From an uncultured Rhodobacter sp. (GTDB taxonomy: Bacteria > Pseudomonadota > Alphaproteobacteria > Rhodobacterales > Rhodobacteraceae): a stretch of 64,000 bases of DNA. Where the stretch lies: NCBI GenBank assembly GCA_945952585.1, contig CAMFII010000003.1, positions 62,001-126,000 of the forward strand. The letters are read 5' to 3'. Below are positions 53,038 through 63,500 of this stretch, one piece after another; the first letter of the stretch is position 1, and the number at the start of each line of letters is the position of its first letter. A program made the position numbers and the translations under genes. The notes below the pieces were generated by a model. It was not told where the DNA came from, did not search any database, and saw only the letters and a program-made list of their open reading frames with translations.

Positions 53038-53873
53038 GCGGCAAGCACCGCGGCGCGGGTTTCGGCATCGACCTCGGGGCGGACACCGAACCAACGCTCG
53101 AAGCCAGGCGCCGCCTGGTGCAGCAGCATGCCGAGGCCATCGACCGTGGTACAGCCCCGCATTGCCGCCTGTTGCAGGAACGTCGTCTGCAGCGGGGTAT
53201 AGACCAGGTCCGTCACCAGAGCCGAAGAGGACAGGTTGTCGAGCGGAACGACGAGATCAGGCTTGCCCGTCATGCCAAGCGCCGTAGTGTTCACCACGGT
53301 GGCGGCATCCTCCAGGAAATTGCCGATCTGAACCCATTCCTCGACCACGAGTTTCGCGCCGAAATCCGACCGCAGCGCCTCGGCCCGGGCGCGGGTGCGG
53401 TTGGCGATCCGGATTTCCGGAACGCCGACCTCGATCAGCGCGGCCACGACTGCCCGGGCAGCGCCGCCGGCGCCAAGCACCACGGCGGGGCCGGCTGATG
53501 GGGCCCAATGGGGCGCCTCCTGCCGAAGGTTGGCGATGAAGCCGGATCCATCGGTGTTATCGGCGAAGACCTTGCCATCCTTGCGGAAGATCAGGGTATT
53601 GGCAGCCCCGATCAGCGCCGCGCGATCGGTGACGATATCGGCAAGCGCCAGCACGGTTTCCTTGTGGGGGATCGTGACGTTCAGCCCGACGAAGCCGACG
53701 CGGGGCAGGAACTGCAGGGCTTCCTTGAGATCGGCCTGGCCGATATCCATCGGGATATAATGACCCTTGATCCCGTAGCGTTTGAGCCAATAGCCGTGCA
53801 GAGCCGGCGAGCGGCTGTGCGCGATTGGGGAGCCGATCACGCCGGCAAGGGGAATACGCGGCAGGTCAGTCAT
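53034..53873 (-). CDS. aroE: Shikimate dehydrogenase (NADP)
   Basis: Reduces 3-dehydroshikimate in aromatic amino-acid synthesis. 279 aa: substrate motif [17 protein letters not shown] near residues 15-31, catalytic Lys in [16 protein letters not shown], and the nucleotide loop [10 protein letters not shown]. Starts 4 bases into the maf end. Confidence 0.94.
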
Positions 53874-54478
53874 GCGGGGATGAAACCTCTCATCCCGAGA
53901 TACCCGAGCAACGGCAACAACGGAAGCCCGAGAACCGAGAAATAGTCGCCCTCGACCGTTTCGAAAAGCCGGATGCCCTCACCCTCAAGCAAGTAGCAGC
54001 CAACGCTGTAGCGGGCCATTTCCCAGTTCCGCGTGAGATAGTCGTCAAGATAAGTTTCGGAGAAGGTCCGCATCGTGAGGCGCGCTGTCGCGATGTGACG
54101 CCAGATCGGTTCGCCATCGTCGTACAGGACAACCGCCGAATGGAGCCTGTGCGTTTCGCCCCGAAGGCGCAGAAGCTGTGCACGGGCCACGGCAAGGCTG
54201 GTGGGCTTGCTCCAGACCTCTCCCTGGAAGTCCAGCGTCTGGTCGCATCCGATGACGAGGGCCCGAGGGTTCTTGTCGGCGATCTTGCGGGCCTTCATCT
54301 CGGCCAGCGTATCGGCGATATCGCGCGGCTTCGCGTCTTCGGCAACCAGCGCCTGCATGATTGATTGTTCATCTACGCGGGCGGCAACGGGCAGGACATT
54401 CACGCCAGCCGCATCCAGTAGCCTTTTCCGAACTTCGGACCGCGATGCCAGGATGATCTCTTTGGGGAGGAGGGTCAT
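53870..54478 (-). CDS. maf: Maf/YceF-family nucleotide pyrophosphatase
   Basis: House-cleaning nucleoside triphosphate pyrophosphatase, 202 aa. The [17 protein letters not shown] signature is at residues 8-24 and the catalytic Asp in [12 protein letters not shown]. The Ser-Lys pair VWSKPTS follows. The first leftward gene beside the predicted origin: a perfect DnaA box begins 6 bp upstream of its ATG, so initiation protein bound there may affect its transcription. This is the 'RP001' position known next to alphaproteobacterial origins. Confidence 0.88.
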
Positions 54479-54879
54479 GAGGCTGTGGATAATCCTGATA
54501 TGTTCCTGCGGCCGTTTACGGGGACCATCGCGGCTGATCGGCAAAAGCATCCTTCACCCGAGGATCTTGTCACGCGAGGTCCGGACTTGTCCACGACGGG
54601 AGAAAATTTACAGGCTGGTGTGGGCAAAGATATCAAGGCCGAGATTGAGGATTCGATCCACAGGTGATCATGGGTCGTCTATGTCGTAATTTATTGATAA
54701 ATAGCGATTTTATATGCGTATTGCAGATGAGAGATAGTTTCTGCGCAAGTTTCCCACAGCCTTTGCCTTGTGGATGCCTGCCGGGAGAAACCCAGAAATC
54801 CCGTTGTCCAGAGGACCAACAGCATCATTCCTTTAAAGACTCTTATCTGATTAGAAGAAGAAGTAGAGAAGAGGGAACC
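54479..54879. other. Predicted chromosomal replication origin (oriC)
   Basis: A 401-bp gap between leftward maf and rightward hemJ without a coding frame I believe. It holds a perfect DnaA box on the minus strand (54484-54492, TTATCCACA), a box similar to the Caulobacter G-box (CGATCCACA, 54654-54662), and boxes with two mismatches at 54587-54595, 54619-54627, 54750-54758 and 54769-54777. The AT-rich run 54681-54720, unusual in this GC-rich DNA, would suit unwinding. Two GANTC sites occur (54650, 54838). Flanking genes match the conserved alphaproteobacterial origin neighbourhood. No CtrA sites of the TTAA-N7-TTAA form were seen. Confidence 0.75.
54484..54492 (-). promoter_or_regulatory. DnaA box, perfect consensus
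   Basis: TTATCCACA on the minus strand, identical to the strongest E. coli R-box, 6 bp upstream of the maf start codon. Outermost left box of the predicted origin. Confidence 0.85.
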
Positions 54880-55329
54880 ATGGGCGACTTTCTGGCCGAG
54901 TACTATTCCTGGACCAAGGCTTTTCACATCATTTCCGTGATCGCCTGGATGGCTGGCCTGTTCTACCTGCCCCGGCTCTTCGTCTATCACAGCGAGGCCG
55001 TGGAAGCCGGAAGCGAAACCGATCGGTTGTTCCAGACGATGGAACGGAAGCTTCTGCGGTTGATCATGAATCCGGCGATGGTGGCGACCTGGATCTTTGG
55101 TCTGGCGCTGGTCTTCACCCCGGGAATCGTCGACTGGAGCATGGTCTGGCCCTGGACAAAGGCGGCGGCTGTTCTGGGAATGAGCTGGTTCCATCACTGG
55201 CTGGCCCGACGGCGAAAGGATTTCGCTGCAGGTCAGAATCTGCGGACCGGCCGGCAGTTCCGGATGATGAATGAATTACCCACCCTCTTGATGCTGGTGA
55301 TCGTGTTGTCGGTGGTCGTGAAGTTCTGA
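54880..55329 (+). CDS. hemJ: Protoporphyrinogen oxidase HemJ
   Basis: Oxidises protoporphyrinogen IX to protoporphyrin IX at the inner membrane. 149 aa with four hydrophobic helices. The conserved His lies in KAFHIISVIAWMAGLFYLPRL (about residue 17), a second in SWFHHWLARR, and the C-terminal NELPTLLMLVIV helix is typical. GAGGGAA precedes the ATG. First rightward gene beside the origin; hemE, which occupies this place in Caulobacter, is absent here. Confidence 0.9.
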   Translation: MGDFLAEYYSWTKAFHIISVIAWMAGLFYLPRLFVYHSEAVEAGSETDRLFQTMERKLLRLIMNPAMVATWIFGLALVFTPGIVDWSMVWPWTKAAAVLGMSWFHHWLARRRKDFAAGQNLRTGRQFRMMNELPTLLMLVIVLSVVVKF

Positions 55330-55460: not shown

Positions 55461-56732
55461 ATGACCAGAGAACGCCTGAACCTGTCCGACCTTAAGGCCA
55501 AGACCCCGGCCGATCTTCTGGCAATGGCAGAAGAGTGGGAGATCGAGAACGCTCCTTCGATGCGCAAGGGCGAGATGATGTTCTCGATCCTGAAGGAGCA
55601 TGCCGAGGAAGGGTACGAGATCGGCGGCGATGGCGTTCTGGAGGTTCTGCAGGATGGTTTCGGCTTTCTGCGCTCGCCCGAGGCGAACTATCTGCCGGGT
55701 CCCGACGATATCTATGTCTCGCCGGAGATCCTCCGCCAGTTCTCGCTGCGGACCGGCGACACGATCGAAGGGGTGATCCAGGCACCGCGGGATTCCGAGC
55801 GCTATTTCTCGCTGACCAAGGTGACGCGGATCAACTTCGATGATCCGGAAAAAGCGCGGCACAAGGTTCATTTCGACAACCTGACACCGCTTTATCCCGA
55901 TGAGCGGCTGAAGATGGAAGTCGAGGATCCGACCATCAAGGACCGCTCCGCGCGGATCATAGACCTAGTCGCGCCGATCGGGAAGGGTCAGCGCGGGCTG
56001 ATCGTGGCGCCGCCGCGGACCGGCAAGACCGTGCTTCTCCAGAACATCGCCCATTCCATCGCGACCAACCATCCGGAATGCTATCTGATCGTCCTGCTGA
56101 TCGACGAGCGGCCGGAGGAAGTGACCGACATGCAGCGGAGCGTGAAGGGTGAGGTTGTGTCCTCGACCTTTGACGAGCCTGCGACCCGCCATGTTGCCGT
56201 CGCCGAAATGGTGATCGAAAAGGCAAAGCGGCTGGTCGAGCACAAACGCGACGTGGTGATCCTGCTGGATTCGATCACCCGGCTTGGCCGCGCCTTCAAC
56301 ACCGTCGTGCCGTCGTCCGGTAAGGTCCTGACCGGCGGTGTCGATGCCAATGCGCTTCAGCGGCCGAAGCGGTTCTTCGGTGCGGCGCGAAATATCGAAG
56401 AAGGCGGGTCGTTGACGATCATCGCCACGGCCCTGATCGATACCGGCAGCCGGATGGACGAAGTGATCTTCGAAGAGTTCAAGGGCACCGGCAACTCGGA
56501 AATCGTGCTGGACCGCAAGGTCGCGGACAAGCGGGTGTTCCCAGCCATGGACATCCTGAAATCCGGCACGCGGAAAGAGGATCTGCTGGTCGACAAGGGC
56601 GATCTGCAGAAGACTTATGTGCTGCGCAGGATCCTGAACCCGATGGGCACGACCGATGCCATCGAGTTCCTGATTTCCAAGCTGAAGCAAACCAAGACCA
56701 ACGCCGAATTCTTCGAGTCGATGAATACCTGA
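55461..56732 (+). CDS. rho: Transcription termination factor Rho
   Basis: Hexameric RNA helicase. 423 aa: N-terminal helical domain and cold-shock RNA-binding domain ([13 protein letters not shown]), Walker [12 protein letters not shown] near residues 182-192, Walker [17 protein letters not shown] and the R-loop segment. ATG at 55461 (MTRERLNL) matches the family; a TTG at 55425 in frame is rejected. Between hemJ and this start (55330-55460) no gene is seen. Confidence 0.95.
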
Positions 56733-58054: not shown

Positions 58055-58070
58055 TGTTTCACGTGAAGCA
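58055..58070. promoter_or_regulatory. parS centromere site 1, at the mnmG start
   Basis: TGTTTCACGTGAAGCA, one mismatch from the ParB consensus TGTTTCACGTGAAACA. The GTG of the central CACGTG is the proposed mnmG start codon. About 3.4 kb from the predicted origin and 3.3 kb before parB. Confidence 0.88.
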
Positions 58071-59925: not shown

Positions 59926-60538
59926 GCTTATCCCGGCAGCTGGGCTGTTCGACGATCCGGAGTTGCGCGGAAAACTTGAACTGTTCGCGGCCTTGGTTGC
60001 AAAGTGGAACCCCTCGATCAATCTTGTTTCACGCGATAGCCTCCGTGACTTGTGGTCCAGGCATATTGCTGACAGCTTGCAGCTTCTGGAGGTGATACCG
60101 ACAGAACCGAGCCGCTGGTTGGATATGGGCAGCGGTGGCGGTTTCCCCGGTGCCGTTGTAGCTATTGCTGCGAAGGTCAAGGGCTGGAAGACCGAGTTCA
60201 TCCTTGCTGAGTCTGACCAACGGAAGGCAGCGTTTCTGCGGACCGTTTCACGTGAAACAGCGGTTGGATTCGATGTTCGCGCGGAGAGAATCGAACAAAT
60301 GCCGCCACAGTCTGCCGATGTTGTATCCGCGCGGGCTTTGGCGCCGTTGATTGATCTGTGTGACTATGCAGTCCGCCACGTCGCGGACGATGGGCTGGCG
60401 ATATTCCCAAAGGGCCAGGGGGCCGACCAAGAGATTATGGAAGCCCGGCGGCTATGGAACTTCCAAGTTACGGCGCAGGCAAGCCATACTGACCCGAGCG
60501 CAAAACTTCTGCTTTTGAAAGGCTTGCGACGTGCCTGA
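59915..60538 (+). CDS. rsmG: 16S rRNA (guanine-527-N7) methyltransferase
   Basis: SAM-dependent methylation of G527 in 16S rRNA. 207 aa: [22 protein letters not shown], the SAM motif [15 protein letters not shown] near residues 69-83, and TVSRETAV. The last segment is the codon image of parS site 2. GTG start overlapping mnmG; its end overlaps parA by 8 bp. Confidence 0.93.
60244..60259. promoter_or_regulatory. parS centromere site 2, inside rsmG
   Basis: CGTTTCACGTGAAACA, one mismatch from consensus at the first base, with the palindromic core intact. In frame it encodes V-S-R-E-T of RsmG, a known place for parS in gidB genes. Confidence 0.88.
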
Positions 60539-61358
60539 CCAGCAAATTTCGCGACAGACGCGTATTCTTGCCGTTGCAAACCAGAAGGGCGGCGTCGGTA
60601 AGACGACGTCGACGATAAACTTGGCCGCAGGGTTGGCCGAGATTGGCGCTCGAGTAGCAATCGTCGATCTGGATCCACAGGGAAATGCGTCAACAGGCCT
60701 CGGGATTGATGCGAACAGCCGCAAGCTGAGCAGCTATGACCTTCTGCTCGAAGAGGCATCGCCACTCTTGGTCTTTCAGGAGGTCAAGGCAGGGCGTCTC
60801 TGGATCTGCCCGGCGACAGCGGATCTTTCGTCGACGGACATGGAGCTTGTGTCAAACGAACGGCGGAGCTTCCTGCTAAGGGATGCGCTTCGTCAGCCGG
60901 CGATCGCGAAATTTGGTTTCGACTTCATTCTGATCGATTGTCCGCCATCCCTGAACTTGCTCACCGTAAACGCGATGGTGGCGGCAGACGCAGTCCTGGT
61001 GCCTTTGCAGGCAGAGTTCTTTGCGCTCGAAGGGTTGTCGCAGCTTATGCTTACCCTCCGCGAAGTTCGGCAAACGGCAAACCCGGACCTTCGCATCGAG
61101 GGCGTGTTGCTGACGATGTACGACACGCGGAACAACCTGTCGCTTCAGGTTGAGCAGGATGCGAGGGAAACGTTGGGCGATCTTGTGTTTCCGATCGTCA
61201 TTCCTCGCAACGTACGCTTGAGCGAGGCACCGTCCTTTGCCCAATCGGTCCTCGAATACGATCCCACTTCAAAGGGTGCGGAGGCATACAGGGCTCTTGC
61301 GAGGATTATTGCTGCGCGCCAGGGCCTGCAATTGGAGAATGAGGGGGTCGCCAGATGA
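60531..61358 (+). CDS. parA: Chromosome-partitioning ATPase ParA
   Basis: Deviant Walker ATPase that moves ParB-parS complexes on the nucleoid. 275 aa with KGGVGKTTSTINLAAGLAE near residues 19-37, DLDPQGNASTGLG and LIDCPPSLNLLTVNA. GTG start within rsmG. Overlaps parB by ATGA. Together with three parS sites it makes a full partition module by the predicted origin. Confidence 0.95.
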   Translation: MPDQQISRQTRILAVANQKGGVGKTTSTINLAAGLAEIGARVAIVDLDPQGNASTGLGIDANSRKLSSYDLLLEEASPLLVFQEVKAGRLWICPATADLSSTDMELVSNERRSFLLRDALRQPAIAKFGFDFILIDCPPSLNLLTVNAMVAADAVLVPLQAEFFALEGLSQLMLTLREVRQTANPDLRIEGVLLTMYDTRNNLSLQVEQDARETLGDLVFPIVIPRNVRLSEAPSFAQSVLEYDPTSKGAEAYRALARIIAARQGLQLENEGVAR

Positions 61359-62269
61359 GCGATAAGCGGACGGAACGGCGGGGGCTGGGTCGAGGTCTTT
61401 CGGCGCTGATGGCTGATGTGAACCTCTATGCGCAACCAAATCCTGCGGAAGCCAAACCGCAGCGGCCCGAGCTTTTCGTGCCGATTGAGTTTCTAATTCC
61501 GAACCCCGATCAACCGAGGCGGACGTTCAGCCCTGAAGCGCTTGAGGATCTAGCCGGCTCTATCCGAGCAAAAGGTGTGATCCAGCCGTTGATCGTACGC
61601 CCTCTCGGAAACGGGACCTACGAGATCGTCGCGGGTGAGCGGCGGTGGCGAGCCGCCCAGATCGCTCAGCTGCACGAGCTGCCCGTTCTGGTTCGTGAAC
61701 TCAGCGACTCTGAGGTTCTGGAAGTTGCAATCATCGAGAACATCCAGCGCGCCGACTTGAATGCGATCGAGGAAGCGATGGCGTATCGGCAACTGATGGA
61801 CAAGTTCGGCCACACGCAGGAAAAGCTTGCAGATGCCCTTGCCAAAAGCCGCAGCCATATAGCCAACCTCCTCCGCCTTCTCAATCTACCGGAGGAAGTG
61901 CAAGCCTATGTCAGGGAAGGAAAACTGACCGCTGGACATGCGCGCGCGCTCGTATCGACGCCGGACCCAGCTGCGCTTGCCCGCATGATCATGGCTCGAG
62001 GAATGTCGGTCCGTCAGGCGGAAGAGCTGGCCCAGTCAGCTCAGAGCAAGAGTCGTACGGCGCGACCTCGAAAGGAGAGCGCCTCTCAAAAGGATGCCGA
62101 CACCTTGGCGCTTGAGGGCGACCTGTCCGCCAATTTGAAGATGGCTGTCCGGATCGAGCACGAGGGCGCGTCGGGCCGCGGGCGGCTGATCGTTGTCTAC
62201 AACAATCTGGACGATCTTGATCTTCTTTGCCGCGCTCTTTCGCAGCTACCTCGCGATGGCTCGGTCTGA
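61355..62269 (+). CDS. parB: Chromosome-partitioning protein ParB
   Basis: CTPase that loads at parS and spreads as a clamp. 304 aa: a basic start RRGLGRGLSALMADV (the ParA-stimulating region), NPDQPRRTF, the CTP-binding GERRWRAAQIAQ near residues 94-105, a helix-turn-helix (TQEKLADALAKSRSHIANLLRLL) near 149-171, and a C-terminal dimer domain. Convergent with hemW, 2 bp between stops. Confidence 0.95.
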   Translation: MSDKRTERRGLGRGLSALMADVNLYAQPNPAEAKPQRPELFVPIEFLIPNPDQPRRTFSPEALEDLAGSIRAKGVIQPLIVRPLGNGTYEIVAGERRWRAAQIAQLHELPVLVRELSDSEVLEVAIIENIQRADLNAIEEAMAYRQLMDKFGHTQEKLADALAKSRSHIANLLRLLNLPEEVQAYVREGKLTAGHARALVSTPDPAALARMIMARGMSVRQAEELAQSAQSKSRTARPRKESASQKDADTLALEGDLSANLKMAVRIEHEGASGRGRLIVVYNNLDDLDLLCRALSQLPRDGSV

Positions 62270-62271
62270 CG

Positions 62272-63492
62272 TCACACCAAAAGCTCGCGCAAGACGGCGT
62301 TCAGGACCAATCGCCCCTCCTCGGTTGCTGACAGCCATCCGTCCTTGATTTGAAGCTTTCCCATCTCGACCAAGGGAGAAATGCGCTCCATGGGGAGGCC
62401 TGCAACGCTAATGCTGGCGGCGCGGCGCAGTTCGACTCCGTCTCGCAACCGCAATCCCATCATCAAGAACTCTTCAAATCTATCGTTGACTGTCAGTATC
62501 TCCCTTGCGTTCTCTCCTGAACCGGATGACCTGACGGAATTGAGCCAAGCCGATGGGCTGCTCCATTGGCTTGTAGCGTGGCGTTGTCCGCCTAACGTCA
62601 GTCGGCCGTGCGCCCCGGGGCCGACACCGACATAGTCCCCACCTTGCCAGTACACCAGATTGTGCCGTGACTCCTGGCCCGGCGCTGCATGATTTGACAG
62701 CTCGTAGGCCGGTAGCCCAGCAGCCTCACATAACTCTTGCGTCACCGAAAAAAGATCGACCGCAAGATCCTCGTCTGGCAAGCCGCGAAGCAGGCCCTTA
62801 TGGAATCGCTCCGCGAAGACGGTCCCGTCCTCAATCGTTAGCTGATAAAGGGAAAGGTGGTCGGCTGCGAGCGAAAGCGCCTTGGAGAGTTCGCGGCGCC
62901 AATCCGCCAGCGACTGCCCTTGCCGCGCATAGATCAAGTCAAAATTGACCCGGTCAAACACTGCCCGCGCTTTTTCATAGGCCGTGATCGCCTCTTTTGC
63001 GCTGTGCATCCGACCGAGTCTGCGAAGGTCCTCATCGTTGAGGGCCTGAATGCCCATTGAAACTCGGTTCACACCCGCATCGCGGTATCCTTGCAGCCTT
63101 CCGGCCTCTATCGAGGTTGGGTTTGCCTCCAAGGTAATTTCAACGTCATTCGCAAAAGACCAGGCCTGGCGGATTGCCTCGAGGATGCCGTTCACAGTCT
63201 GGGGCTCCATCAACGACGGAGTGCCTCCACCAAAGTAGACCGATCTAACGGTCCTGCCCGGCGTCTCTAGTGCCTGCCTCCCGATATCCCGCTGGTAGGC
63301 AGCCAACCACTCGAGTTGGTCGATCTGGCCGGCTACATGGCTATTGAAATCGCAGTAGGGGCATTTCGAAAGGCAAAACGGCCAATGCACATAAACGGCA
63401 AAACCCCCAGCTTGCCAATCCTCTAAACCATCCGCCACGGCGCCAATCGGGCCGCTCGTCAATTCCTGAAGGGGTTGGGTGGAGCGTTTCAC
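62272..63492 (-). CDS. hemW: HemW-like radical SAM protein
   Basis: Radical-SAM haem chaperone, formerly taken for oxygen-independent coproporphyrinogen oxidase. 406 aa. The cluster motif CLSKCPYC gives Cys 40, 44 and 47; three cysteines without the extra HemN Cys favours HemW. YFGGGTPSLM and VNRVSMGIQ follow. The start is GTG at 63492, overlapping the rdgB stop by four bases (GTGA), so it is likely coupled; the codon lies in parS site 3. A shorter start nearer EDWQAGGFAVYVHW cannot be excluded. Confidence 0.88.
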   Translation of the reverse strand: MKRSTQPLQELTSGPIGAVADGLEDWQAGGFAVYVHWPFCLSKCPYCDFNSHVAGQIDQLEWLAAYQRDIGRQALETPGRTVRSVYFGGGTPSLMEPQTVNGILEAIRQAWSFANDVEITLEANPTSIEAGRLQGYRDAGVNRVSMGIQALNDEDLRRLGRMHSAKEAITAYEKARAVFDRVNFDLIYARQGQSLADWRRELSKALSLAADHLSLYQLTIEDGTVFAERFHKGLLRGLPDEDLAVDLFSVTQELCEAAGLPAYELSNHAAPGQESRHNLVYWQGGDYVGVGPGAHGRLTLGGQRHATSQWSSPSAWLNSVRSSGSGENAREILTVNDRFEEFLMMGLRLRDGVELRRAASISVAGLPMERISPLVEMGKLQIKDGWLSATEEGRLVLNAVLRELLV

Positions 63493-63500
63493 GTGAAACA
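63485..63500. promoter_or_regulatory. parS centromere site 3, at the rdgB-hemW junction
   Basis: CGTTTCACGTGAAACA on the plus strand, one mismatch from consensus. On the minus strand it encodes the last residues and stop of rdgB and, through the GTG of its core, the hemW start. About 1.2 kb past parB. Confidence 0.88.

What the first reader, a model, noticed from the sequence alone, without database searches (positions are those of the whole stretch)
54479..54879. Predicted replication origin between maf and hemJ
The gap contains a perfect TTATCCACA box beside maf, a G-box-like CGATCCACA, several weaker boxes and a 40-bp AT-rich run in otherwise GC-rich DNA. Gene direction switches here: maf-aroE-coaE-dnaQ leave to the left, hemJ-rho-mnmE-mnmG-rsmG-parAB to the right. 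In Caulobacter and relatives oriC lies between hemE and the maf-type gene; here hemJ takes the hemE side. That substitution and the lack of visible CtrA sites would make this a variant origin layout.
Basis: partly seen in the sequence, partly recalled or inferred. Interest (0 to 1): 0.75.

Follow-up and report, generated by a model that had tools for sequence, protein, structure and literature searches.

The report
Chromosome replication origin of a Rhodobacteraceae bacterium
The stretch between the maf and hemJ genes is almost certainly where this bacterium starts copying its chromosome; its place is the usual one in its family, and the short repeat where the DNA may open differs from the textbook form.

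Summary
The 401-bp maf/hemJ gap has 8 DnaA-box-like 9-mers (at most 2 mismatches; shuffles average 1.1, 0 of 2000 reach 8), a perfect IHF consensus and the most AT-rich 40-mer of 164 kb examined. All 3 parS-like sites found in the 3.9-Mb draft lie within 9 kb to its right. Sampled GC skew in four single-contig family chromosomes favours an origin here.

The 'variant layout' is the family's commonest: maf faces hemJ directly in 77 of 91 family genomes examined. It is not universal: 6 keep hemE before hemJ, and 4 others keep a PF03618-like gene. Outside the family the order is mostly maf-hemE-hemJ-rho. Print already places the Rhodobacteraceae oriC beside maf.

What may be new is at the hemJ end: last box, GC-rich spacer, CTA..CATCAT triplets, AT-rich tract. 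This looks like the DnaA-trio unwinding module but with 3'-GTA-5' where Bacillus has 3'-GAT-5'. Alphaproteobacterial DnaA has Tyr (one Phe) at the Asn187 position in 59 of 59 examined. The link is inferred, and phase-locking of the triplets to the box, clear in close relatives, was not significant in more distant family members.

The parts
54479..54879 (.). predicted chromosomal oriC: 401-bp gap between divergent maf and hemJ
   Evidence: box cluster beyond chance; same layout in 77 of 91 family genomes examined
54484..54492 (-). DnaA box 1, TTATCCACA (perfect)
   Evidence: family register peak at gap position 8, 42 of 110, at most 2 mismatches, within 2 bp
54587..54595 (+). DnaA box 2, TTGTCCACG
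   Evidence: family peak at 111, 42 of 110
54619..54627 (-). DnaA box 3, TTGCCCACA (weak)
   Evidence: family peak at 143, 30 of 110
54654..54662 (+). DnaA box 4, CGATCCACA (weak)
   Evidence: family peak at 174, 50 of 110
54687..54699 (-). IHF-type site TATCAATAAATTA, perfect to WATCAANNNNTTR (consensus recalled); overlaps the box-like TTATCAATA at 54692, which has no listed family peak
   Evidence: perfect sites in 17 of 110 family gaps, shuffled 2; 14 of 18 sites in this register
54689..54728 (.). central AT-rich run, most AT-rich 40-mer of the 164 kb examined
54750..54758 (+). DnaA box 5, TTTCCCACA (weak)
   Evidence: family peak at 273, 62 of 110
54769..54777 (-). DnaA box 6, GCATCCACA (weak)
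   Evidence: family peak at 293, 71 of 110
54804..54812 (+). DnaA box 7, TTGTCCAGA (weak); the family's box just before it (peak at 315, 59 of 110) has no counterpart with at most 2 mismatches here
   Evidence: family peak at 326, 55 of 110
54813..54816 (.). 4-bp spacer GGAC between last box and triplet run
   Evidence: 4 bp is the commonest spacer in close relatives, 32 of 71 measured
54817..54828 (-). triplets CAA CAG CAT CAT on the + strand (3'-GTT GTC GTA GTA-5' on the - strand): candidate variant DnaA-trios
   Evidence: runs of 4 or more C[AT]N triplets in 53 of 110 close-set gaps (shuffled 6.5) and 12 of 47 more distant family gaps
54829..54862 (.). pyrimidine/AT-rich tract, candidate unwinding element
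   Evidence: family AT content 0.70-0.81 over gap positions 341-380
53870..54478 (-). maf
   Evidence: NCBIfam Maf models, below cut-offs
54880..55329 (+). hemJ
   Evidence: TIGR00701 above cut-off
55461..56732 (+). rho
   Evidence: TIGR00767 above cut-off (residues from 55464)
60531..61358 (+). parA
   Evidence: ParA-type families, below cut-offs
61355..62269 (+). parB
   Evidence: TIGR00180 above cut-off
58056..58069 (.). parS-like site, 1 mismatch (consensus recalled)
60245..60258 (.). parS-like site GTTTCACGTGAAAC
63486..63499 (.). parS-like site GTTTCACGTGAAAC

Best explanation
This is the chromosomal replication origin (oriC) of a Rhodobacteraceae bacterium. DnaA loads on about seven mostly weak boxes spread over 330 bp. 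IHF bends the AT-rich centre and brings the left boxes (1-4) to the right boxes (5-7). From box 7 a DnaA filament extends over the short spacer onto the triplet array and opens the AT-rich tract beside hemJ, where helicase is loaded. ParB on the three parS-like sites to the right then segregates the new origins. Shown by sequence: the sites, their shared register in relatives, the skew in relatives and the parS cluster. Inferred: DnaA and IHF binding, the opening site and every step in cells.
For: 8 boxes against 1.1 by chance; best box density and AT run in the 164 kb examined. Boxes with at most 1 mismatch: 2.55 per gap in 110 relatives, 0.096 shuffled, and 2.47 in 47 further family gaps, 0.113 with single-base shuffles. 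Seven of the window's eight sites lie on shared register peaks (positions come from an alignment, which may favour this, but unaligned positions agree). Perfect IHF consensus in register. All 3 parS-like sites (at most 1 mismatch) found in the draft lie 3.2-8.6 kb right of the gap. In four single-contig chromosomes the split at hemJ is best or near-best; 3.9, 6.7, 9.7 and 3.8% of rotations do as well. Same-genus draft G120: skew negative in 9 of 11 stretches on one side, positive in 1 of 1 on the other. The dnaA, hemE and hemH loci have at most 2 boxes per 400 bp.
Against: GC skew around the gap in this genome is weak and the switch not crisp. The genome is a 21-contig draft: cumulative skew could not be drawn, and box clusters were not scanned over all of it. 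In G101 the best split is 12% of the chromosome away; in G003 three stretches just right of hemJ are slightly negative. In two of the four skew genomes (G093, G101) hemE lies between maf and hemJ, so they test the region rather than this exact gap. Seven of the eight boxes have 2 mismatches. There is no experiment.
Confidence: 0.94

Rival explanations
1. The gap is only a divergent maf/hemJ promoter region with DnaA-regulated transcription; replication starts elsewhere, for example near dnaA or at the relocated hemE.
For: DnaA boxes also occur in promoters; maf and hemJ are divergent.
Against: The dnaA, hemE and hemH loci show no box cluster; hemE sits in a short gap beside hemC. Skew in relatives and parS point here. 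In the 9 family genomes with hemE or a PF03618-like gene between maf and hemJ, boxes (1-3 with at most 1 mismatch) lie within the 450 bp (or shorter gap) before hemE or hemJ. In Paracoccus marinus no maf was found but the hemJ-end element is present.
Confidence: 0.04
2. The hemJ-end triplet block is a hemJ leader or promoter element rather than part of the origin.
For: It lies within 40-90 bp of hemJ in the family. In 17 other-family loci only 2 have a run of 4 or more C[AT]N triplets in the 130 bp before hemE.
Against: 0 of 19 other-family loci have such a run in the 130 bp before hemJ, so it does not follow hemJ. In a second set, runs occur in 20 of 47 stretches of 450 bp before hemE against 4.2 shuffled, 11 of the 20 at -90..-40.
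Confidence: 0.25
3. The triplets are ordinary DnaA-trios read one base over, as 3'-TAG-5' with a central adenine, so DnaA recognition is not different.
For: The published search pattern accepts 3'-NAN-5' within 16 bp of a box (PMC8287927, section 14 part 1), and such runs are longer than chance in the family (mean 5.70 against 4.29 shuffled).
Against: Runs of 4 or more of that loose pattern are common by chance (85 of 110 shuffled, 103 observed). In this window the shifted frame gives only two triplets after box 7. The captured pair would be 3'-TA-5', not the preferred 3'-GA-5' (PMC10721633, passages).
Confidence: 0.4

Closest known systems
Predicted oriC of Rhodobacteraceae (DoriC/Ori-Finder; Ketogulonicigenium vulgare PMC4793288; 101 genomes PMC6699656)
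   Same: oriC adjacent to maf, said to be conserved in the family; predicted with proximity to parAB and a local GC minimum as criteria (passages)
   Different: The passages read do not describe the hemJ side, the box register or the triplet element; supplements were not read
Caulobacter crescentus Cori
   Same: about 400 bp (404 bp in print), DnaA boxes, one IHF site, AT-rich run of 40 bp (PMC1914354, passages)
   Different: Flanked by hemE and COG1806; five CtrA sites in print, none with at most 1 mismatch here
Basal unwinding system (BUS) with DnaA-trios, Bacillus subtilis and others (PMC8287927, PMC10721633)
   Same: DnaA box, GC-rich spacer of about 4 bp, repeated trinucleotides, then AT-rich DNA
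   Different: Triplets 2-4 mostly 3'-GTA-5' instead of 3'-GAT-5'; DnaA has Tyr at the Asn187 position and Lys at the Arg202 position

Membership tests
Bacterial DnaA-dependent chromosomal oriC | cluster of DnaA boxes beyond chance | tested here: met
   8 against 1.10 shuffled, 0 of 2000
Bacterial DnaA-dependent chromosomal oriC | AT-rich unwinding region | tested here: met
   most AT-rich 40-mer of 164 kb; second AT-rich tract conserved
Bacterial DnaA-dependent chromosomal oriC | GC-skew switch | tested here: inconclusive
   supported in 4 sampled relatives; weak in this draft genome
Bacterial DnaA-dependent chromosomal oriC | initiation in cells | not testable with these tools
   needs marker frequency or a replicon test
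Rhodobacteraceae maf-type oriC | origin gap beside maf | tested here: met
Caulobacter-type Cori | hemE and COG1806 as flanking genes | tested here: not met
   hemE on another contig; no PF03618 match in the draft
Caulobacter-type Cori | IHF site | tested here: met
   54687-54699, perfect consensus
Caulobacter-type Cori | CtrA sites TTAA-N7-TTAA | tested here: not met
   none with at most 1 mismatch here; in relatives 10 of 110 gaps have a perfect site, shuffled 2.0
BUS / DnaA-trios | published rule: DnaA box within 16 bp of at least three 3'-NAN-5' triplets | tested here: not met
   at box 7 at most two; a run of three follows box 4, away from the candidate unwinding tract
BUS / DnaA-trios | form: box, GC-rich spacer of about 4 bp, in-phase trinucleotides, AT-rich DNA | tested here: inconclusive
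   box 54804-54812, GGAC, CAA CAG CAT CAT; phase to box clear in close set (56 of 71) but not in the distant family set (12, 9 and 5 of 26)

The most novel reading that the evidence does not exclude
Rhodobacteraceae origins use a DnaA-trio variant: the box-proximal triplet is often canonical 3'-GAT-5' (middle T on the + strand in 34 of 53 gaps), but triplets 2-4 are mostly 3'-GTA-5' (middle A on the + strand in 43, 49 and 46 of 53). It goes with a class-wide change of base-reading DnaA residues: Tyr (one Phe) at Asn187 and Lys at Arg202 in 59 of 59 sequences examined. If so, alphaproteobacterial DnaA captures another base or register when it opens DNA.
Probability: 0.25. Interest if true: 0.6.

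Novelty: new member of a known kind. Interest (0 to 1): 0.33.

Why it matters
It fixes the origin of this chromosome and shows how its flank may have arisen: within one family there are origins with a PF03618-like gene and hemE, with either alone, and with neither, while an origin region stays beside maf. The triplet array by the last DnaA box, with the altered DnaA residues, gives a cheap test of whether the Bacillus DnaA-trio rule holds in Alphaproteobacteria.

Tried and rejected
1) Alternative origin at dnaA, hemE or hemH: no box cluster. 2) CtrA control: none in the window with at most 1 mismatch; across 110 gaps perfect sites occur in 10 (shuffled 2.0) and sites with at most 1 mismatch in 36 (shuffled 23.4), so a role in some relatives is not excluded. 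3) GANTC sites: 114 against 182.8 shuffled. 4) My first claim that lack of hemE is family-wide: wrong. It came from the closest HemJ matches (115 of 117); the wider set shows 6 of 91 family genomes with hemE before hemJ. 5) A family-only CTA-to-CAT switch: weakened, since CATCAT also occurs in 7 of 47 other-family stretches and CTACTA in 7 of 47; only proportions differ (CAT 132 of 245 triplets in the family, 19 of 91 in others). 6) Phase-lock of triplets to the box: 56 of 71 in the close set, none seen in 13 other-family stretches, 12 of 26 in the distant family set; related sequences probably inflate the first figure. 7) DnaA residues explaining family differences: rejected, they are class-wide.

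Limits: family genomes were taken by HemJ match. In one search, 105 of 120 matched; 13 of these only weakly (E above 1e-8) and 15 not at all, so 28 of 120 were not examined; of the 92 strong ones 91 were (G102 left out, its match starts at the contig edge). Some of the 80 named loci carry other titles (Rhizobium, Planctomycetota). In one search, 57 of 58 class genomes matched rho; 20 stretches were fetched, mainly best matches. DnaA residues come from the 30 best loci of each. Paper supplements were not read; PMC5043019, the only paper holding both 'DnaA-trio' and 'Alphaproteobacteria', was seen as a listing only.

Full report
WHERE. The window is contig C3:62001-126000 of a 3.91-Mb, 21-contig draft. 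A same-genus genome, G120, has a HemJ 91% identical on a contig of 1,199,516 bases, the length of the Tabrizicola rongguiensis J26 contig; most titled relatives there are Rhodobacteraceae.

THE OBSERVATION. All listed features are there. The gap has 8 sites with at most 2 mismatches to TTATCCACA, against 1.10 in shuffles and 0 of 2000 as high. The best 400 bp elsewhere, in the rest of the window and five 20-kb stretches of C3, has 3. The gap's best 40-mer is 75% AT, at most 70% elsewhere in the same 164 kb.

CONSERVED ANATOMY. Among 117 loci with close HemJ (36, one, 80; the window included), 115 have divergent maf and hemJ with a gap of 337-469 bp, median 400. After removing near-duplicates, 110 gaps hold 2.55 boxes each with at most 1 mismatch, 0.096 shuffled, peaking at shared positions and strands; seven of the window's eight sites lie on those peaks. 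Perfect IHF sites occur in 17 of 110 gaps, 2 shuffled, 14 of 18 sites in the window's register. In 47 further, more distant family gaps of the same layout, boxes number 2.47 per gap against 0.113 with single-base shuffles.

SEGREGATION AND SKEW. Three parS-like sites with at most 1 mismatch were found in the draft, all at C3:120056-125499, window 58056, 60245 and 63486. In single-contig chromosomes G003, G093, G101 and G055 (20, 20, 10 and 10 stretches of 20 kb) the split at hemJ scores 0.071, 0.040, 0.035 and 0.049; the best split lies 2.3, 0.7, 12.3 and 2.6% of the chromosome away, and 3.9, 6.7, 9.7 and 3.8% of rotations do as well. G055 and G003 have maf directly facing hemJ; G093 and G101 have hemE between them. 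Against a crisp switch: three stretches right of hemJ in G003 are slightly negative, and skew around the gap in this genome is weak.

LAYOUT. Of 19 loci from other families, 16 show maf-hemE-hemJ-rho; one has hemE-hemJ-rho with no maf found, one lacks hemE there, one is cut short. 15 of the 19 have a PF03618-like gene in the stretch; in two read gene by gene it lies between maf and the origin, with a ferrochelatase gene between hemE and hemJ. In L158 the hemE to PF03618 gap is 407 bp. In the family, 91 of 92 genomes with a strong HemJ match were examined: maf faces hemJ directly in 77 (30, whose gaps run 166-471 bp, median 395); 5 have maf-hemE-hemJ and 1 hemE-hemJ with no maf in the stretch; 4 have maf-PF03618-like-hemJ; 2 have aroE-hemJ without maf; 2 have neither maf nor hemE found. 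Of the 5, three also have the PF03618-like gene. So both single-loss states exist, and the simplest history is stepwise loss or removal of these genes beside an origin that stayed. In this genome hemE is on C2 beside hemC, hemH at C3:165098, and PF03618 has no match. Print already states that oriC beside maf is conserved in Rhodobacteraceae (PMC4793288, passages), and origins of 101 family strains were predicted (PMC6699656, passages). Flank changes are also known from Wolbachia (PMC1914354, passages).

THE hemJ-END ELEMENT. The most conserved block of the gap lies between the last box and hemJ. Runs of 4 or more in-phase C[AT]N triplets occur in 53 of 110 close-set gaps against 6.5 shuffled, all 53 at -90 to -40 from hemJ, and in 12 of 47 more distant family gaps. 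In other families they occur in 20 of 47 stretches of 450 bp before hemE against 4.2 shuffled, 11 of the 20 at -90 to -40, but in only 2 of 17 within 130 bp of hemE in the first set, and in 0 of 19 within 130 bp of hemJ. From the box end to the run, 4 bp is the commonest distance in the close set (32 of 71) and 56 of 71 share one phase; 13 other-family stretches show none; measured to CATCAT, the distant family set gives 12, 9 and 5 of 26, not a clear preference. CTA and CATCAT stay in phase in both sets, 45 of 49 and 15 of 19. In the window: box TTGTCCAGA 54804-54812, GGAC, CAA CAG CAT CAT 54817-54828. The form resembles the published unwinding module (PMC8287927, passages and section 14 part 1), though the window fails its rule of three 3'-NAN-5' at this box. 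Published trios are 3'-GAT-5' with 3'-GA-5' preferred, and thymine at the centre is poor in B. subtilis (PMC10721633, passages). Here triplets 2-4 have central T on the read strand in 43, 49 and 46 of 53 gaps, in runs picked for C[AT]N. Read one base over, the family run is 3'-TAG-5' with a central A; I cannot exclude that.

DnaA. The genome's DnaA aligns without gaps to B. subtilis DnaA (8btg) over this segment. At Asn187 (contacts the central adenine) and Arg202 (contacts the guanine), 31 of 31 family sequences have Tyr and Lys, and 28 of 28 others have Tyr (27) or Phe (1) and Lys. The change is class-wide in this sample and only consistent with a different reading of the triplets.

VERDICT. 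A chromosomal oriC of a known kind at a known family location (0.94). The open, testable part is the variant trio (0.25, lowered). Searches for prior description: with listings capped (12 of 49; 12 of 25); no listed title or abstract start described alphaproteobacterial trios; subscription papers and supplements were not covered.

Noticed in passing
L242:4500-5210: In Paracoccus marinus no maf was found by the origin; aroE is the left neighbour, yet AACAACATCATC before hemJ is present, with a near-parS palindrome (TTTCACGTGAAGC) inside the gap.
   Followed up: partly
L365, L391, L411, L412: Four family genomes keep a PF03618-like gene between maf and hemJ but no hemE; L357 and L416 keep hemE without a PF03618-like hit: both single-loss states of the origin flank.
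   Followed up: partly
L001:1492-3575: The relocated hemE lies head to head with hemC in the window genome and in G147; no hemC was found beside hemE in G055.
   Followed up: partly
L167: Contig CAMFHT010000067.1, titled uncultured Rhizobium sp., encodes a HemJ identical to the window's and is probably mislabelled.
   Followed up: no
window:58056-63499: The three parS-like sites all fall in or at the ends of genes to the right of the gap (mnmG start, rsmG, near 63486), none to the left.
   Followed up: partly
rows: 28 of 120 family genomes have no HemJ match or only weak ones (23-38% identity); what flanks their origin was not examined.
   Followed up: no
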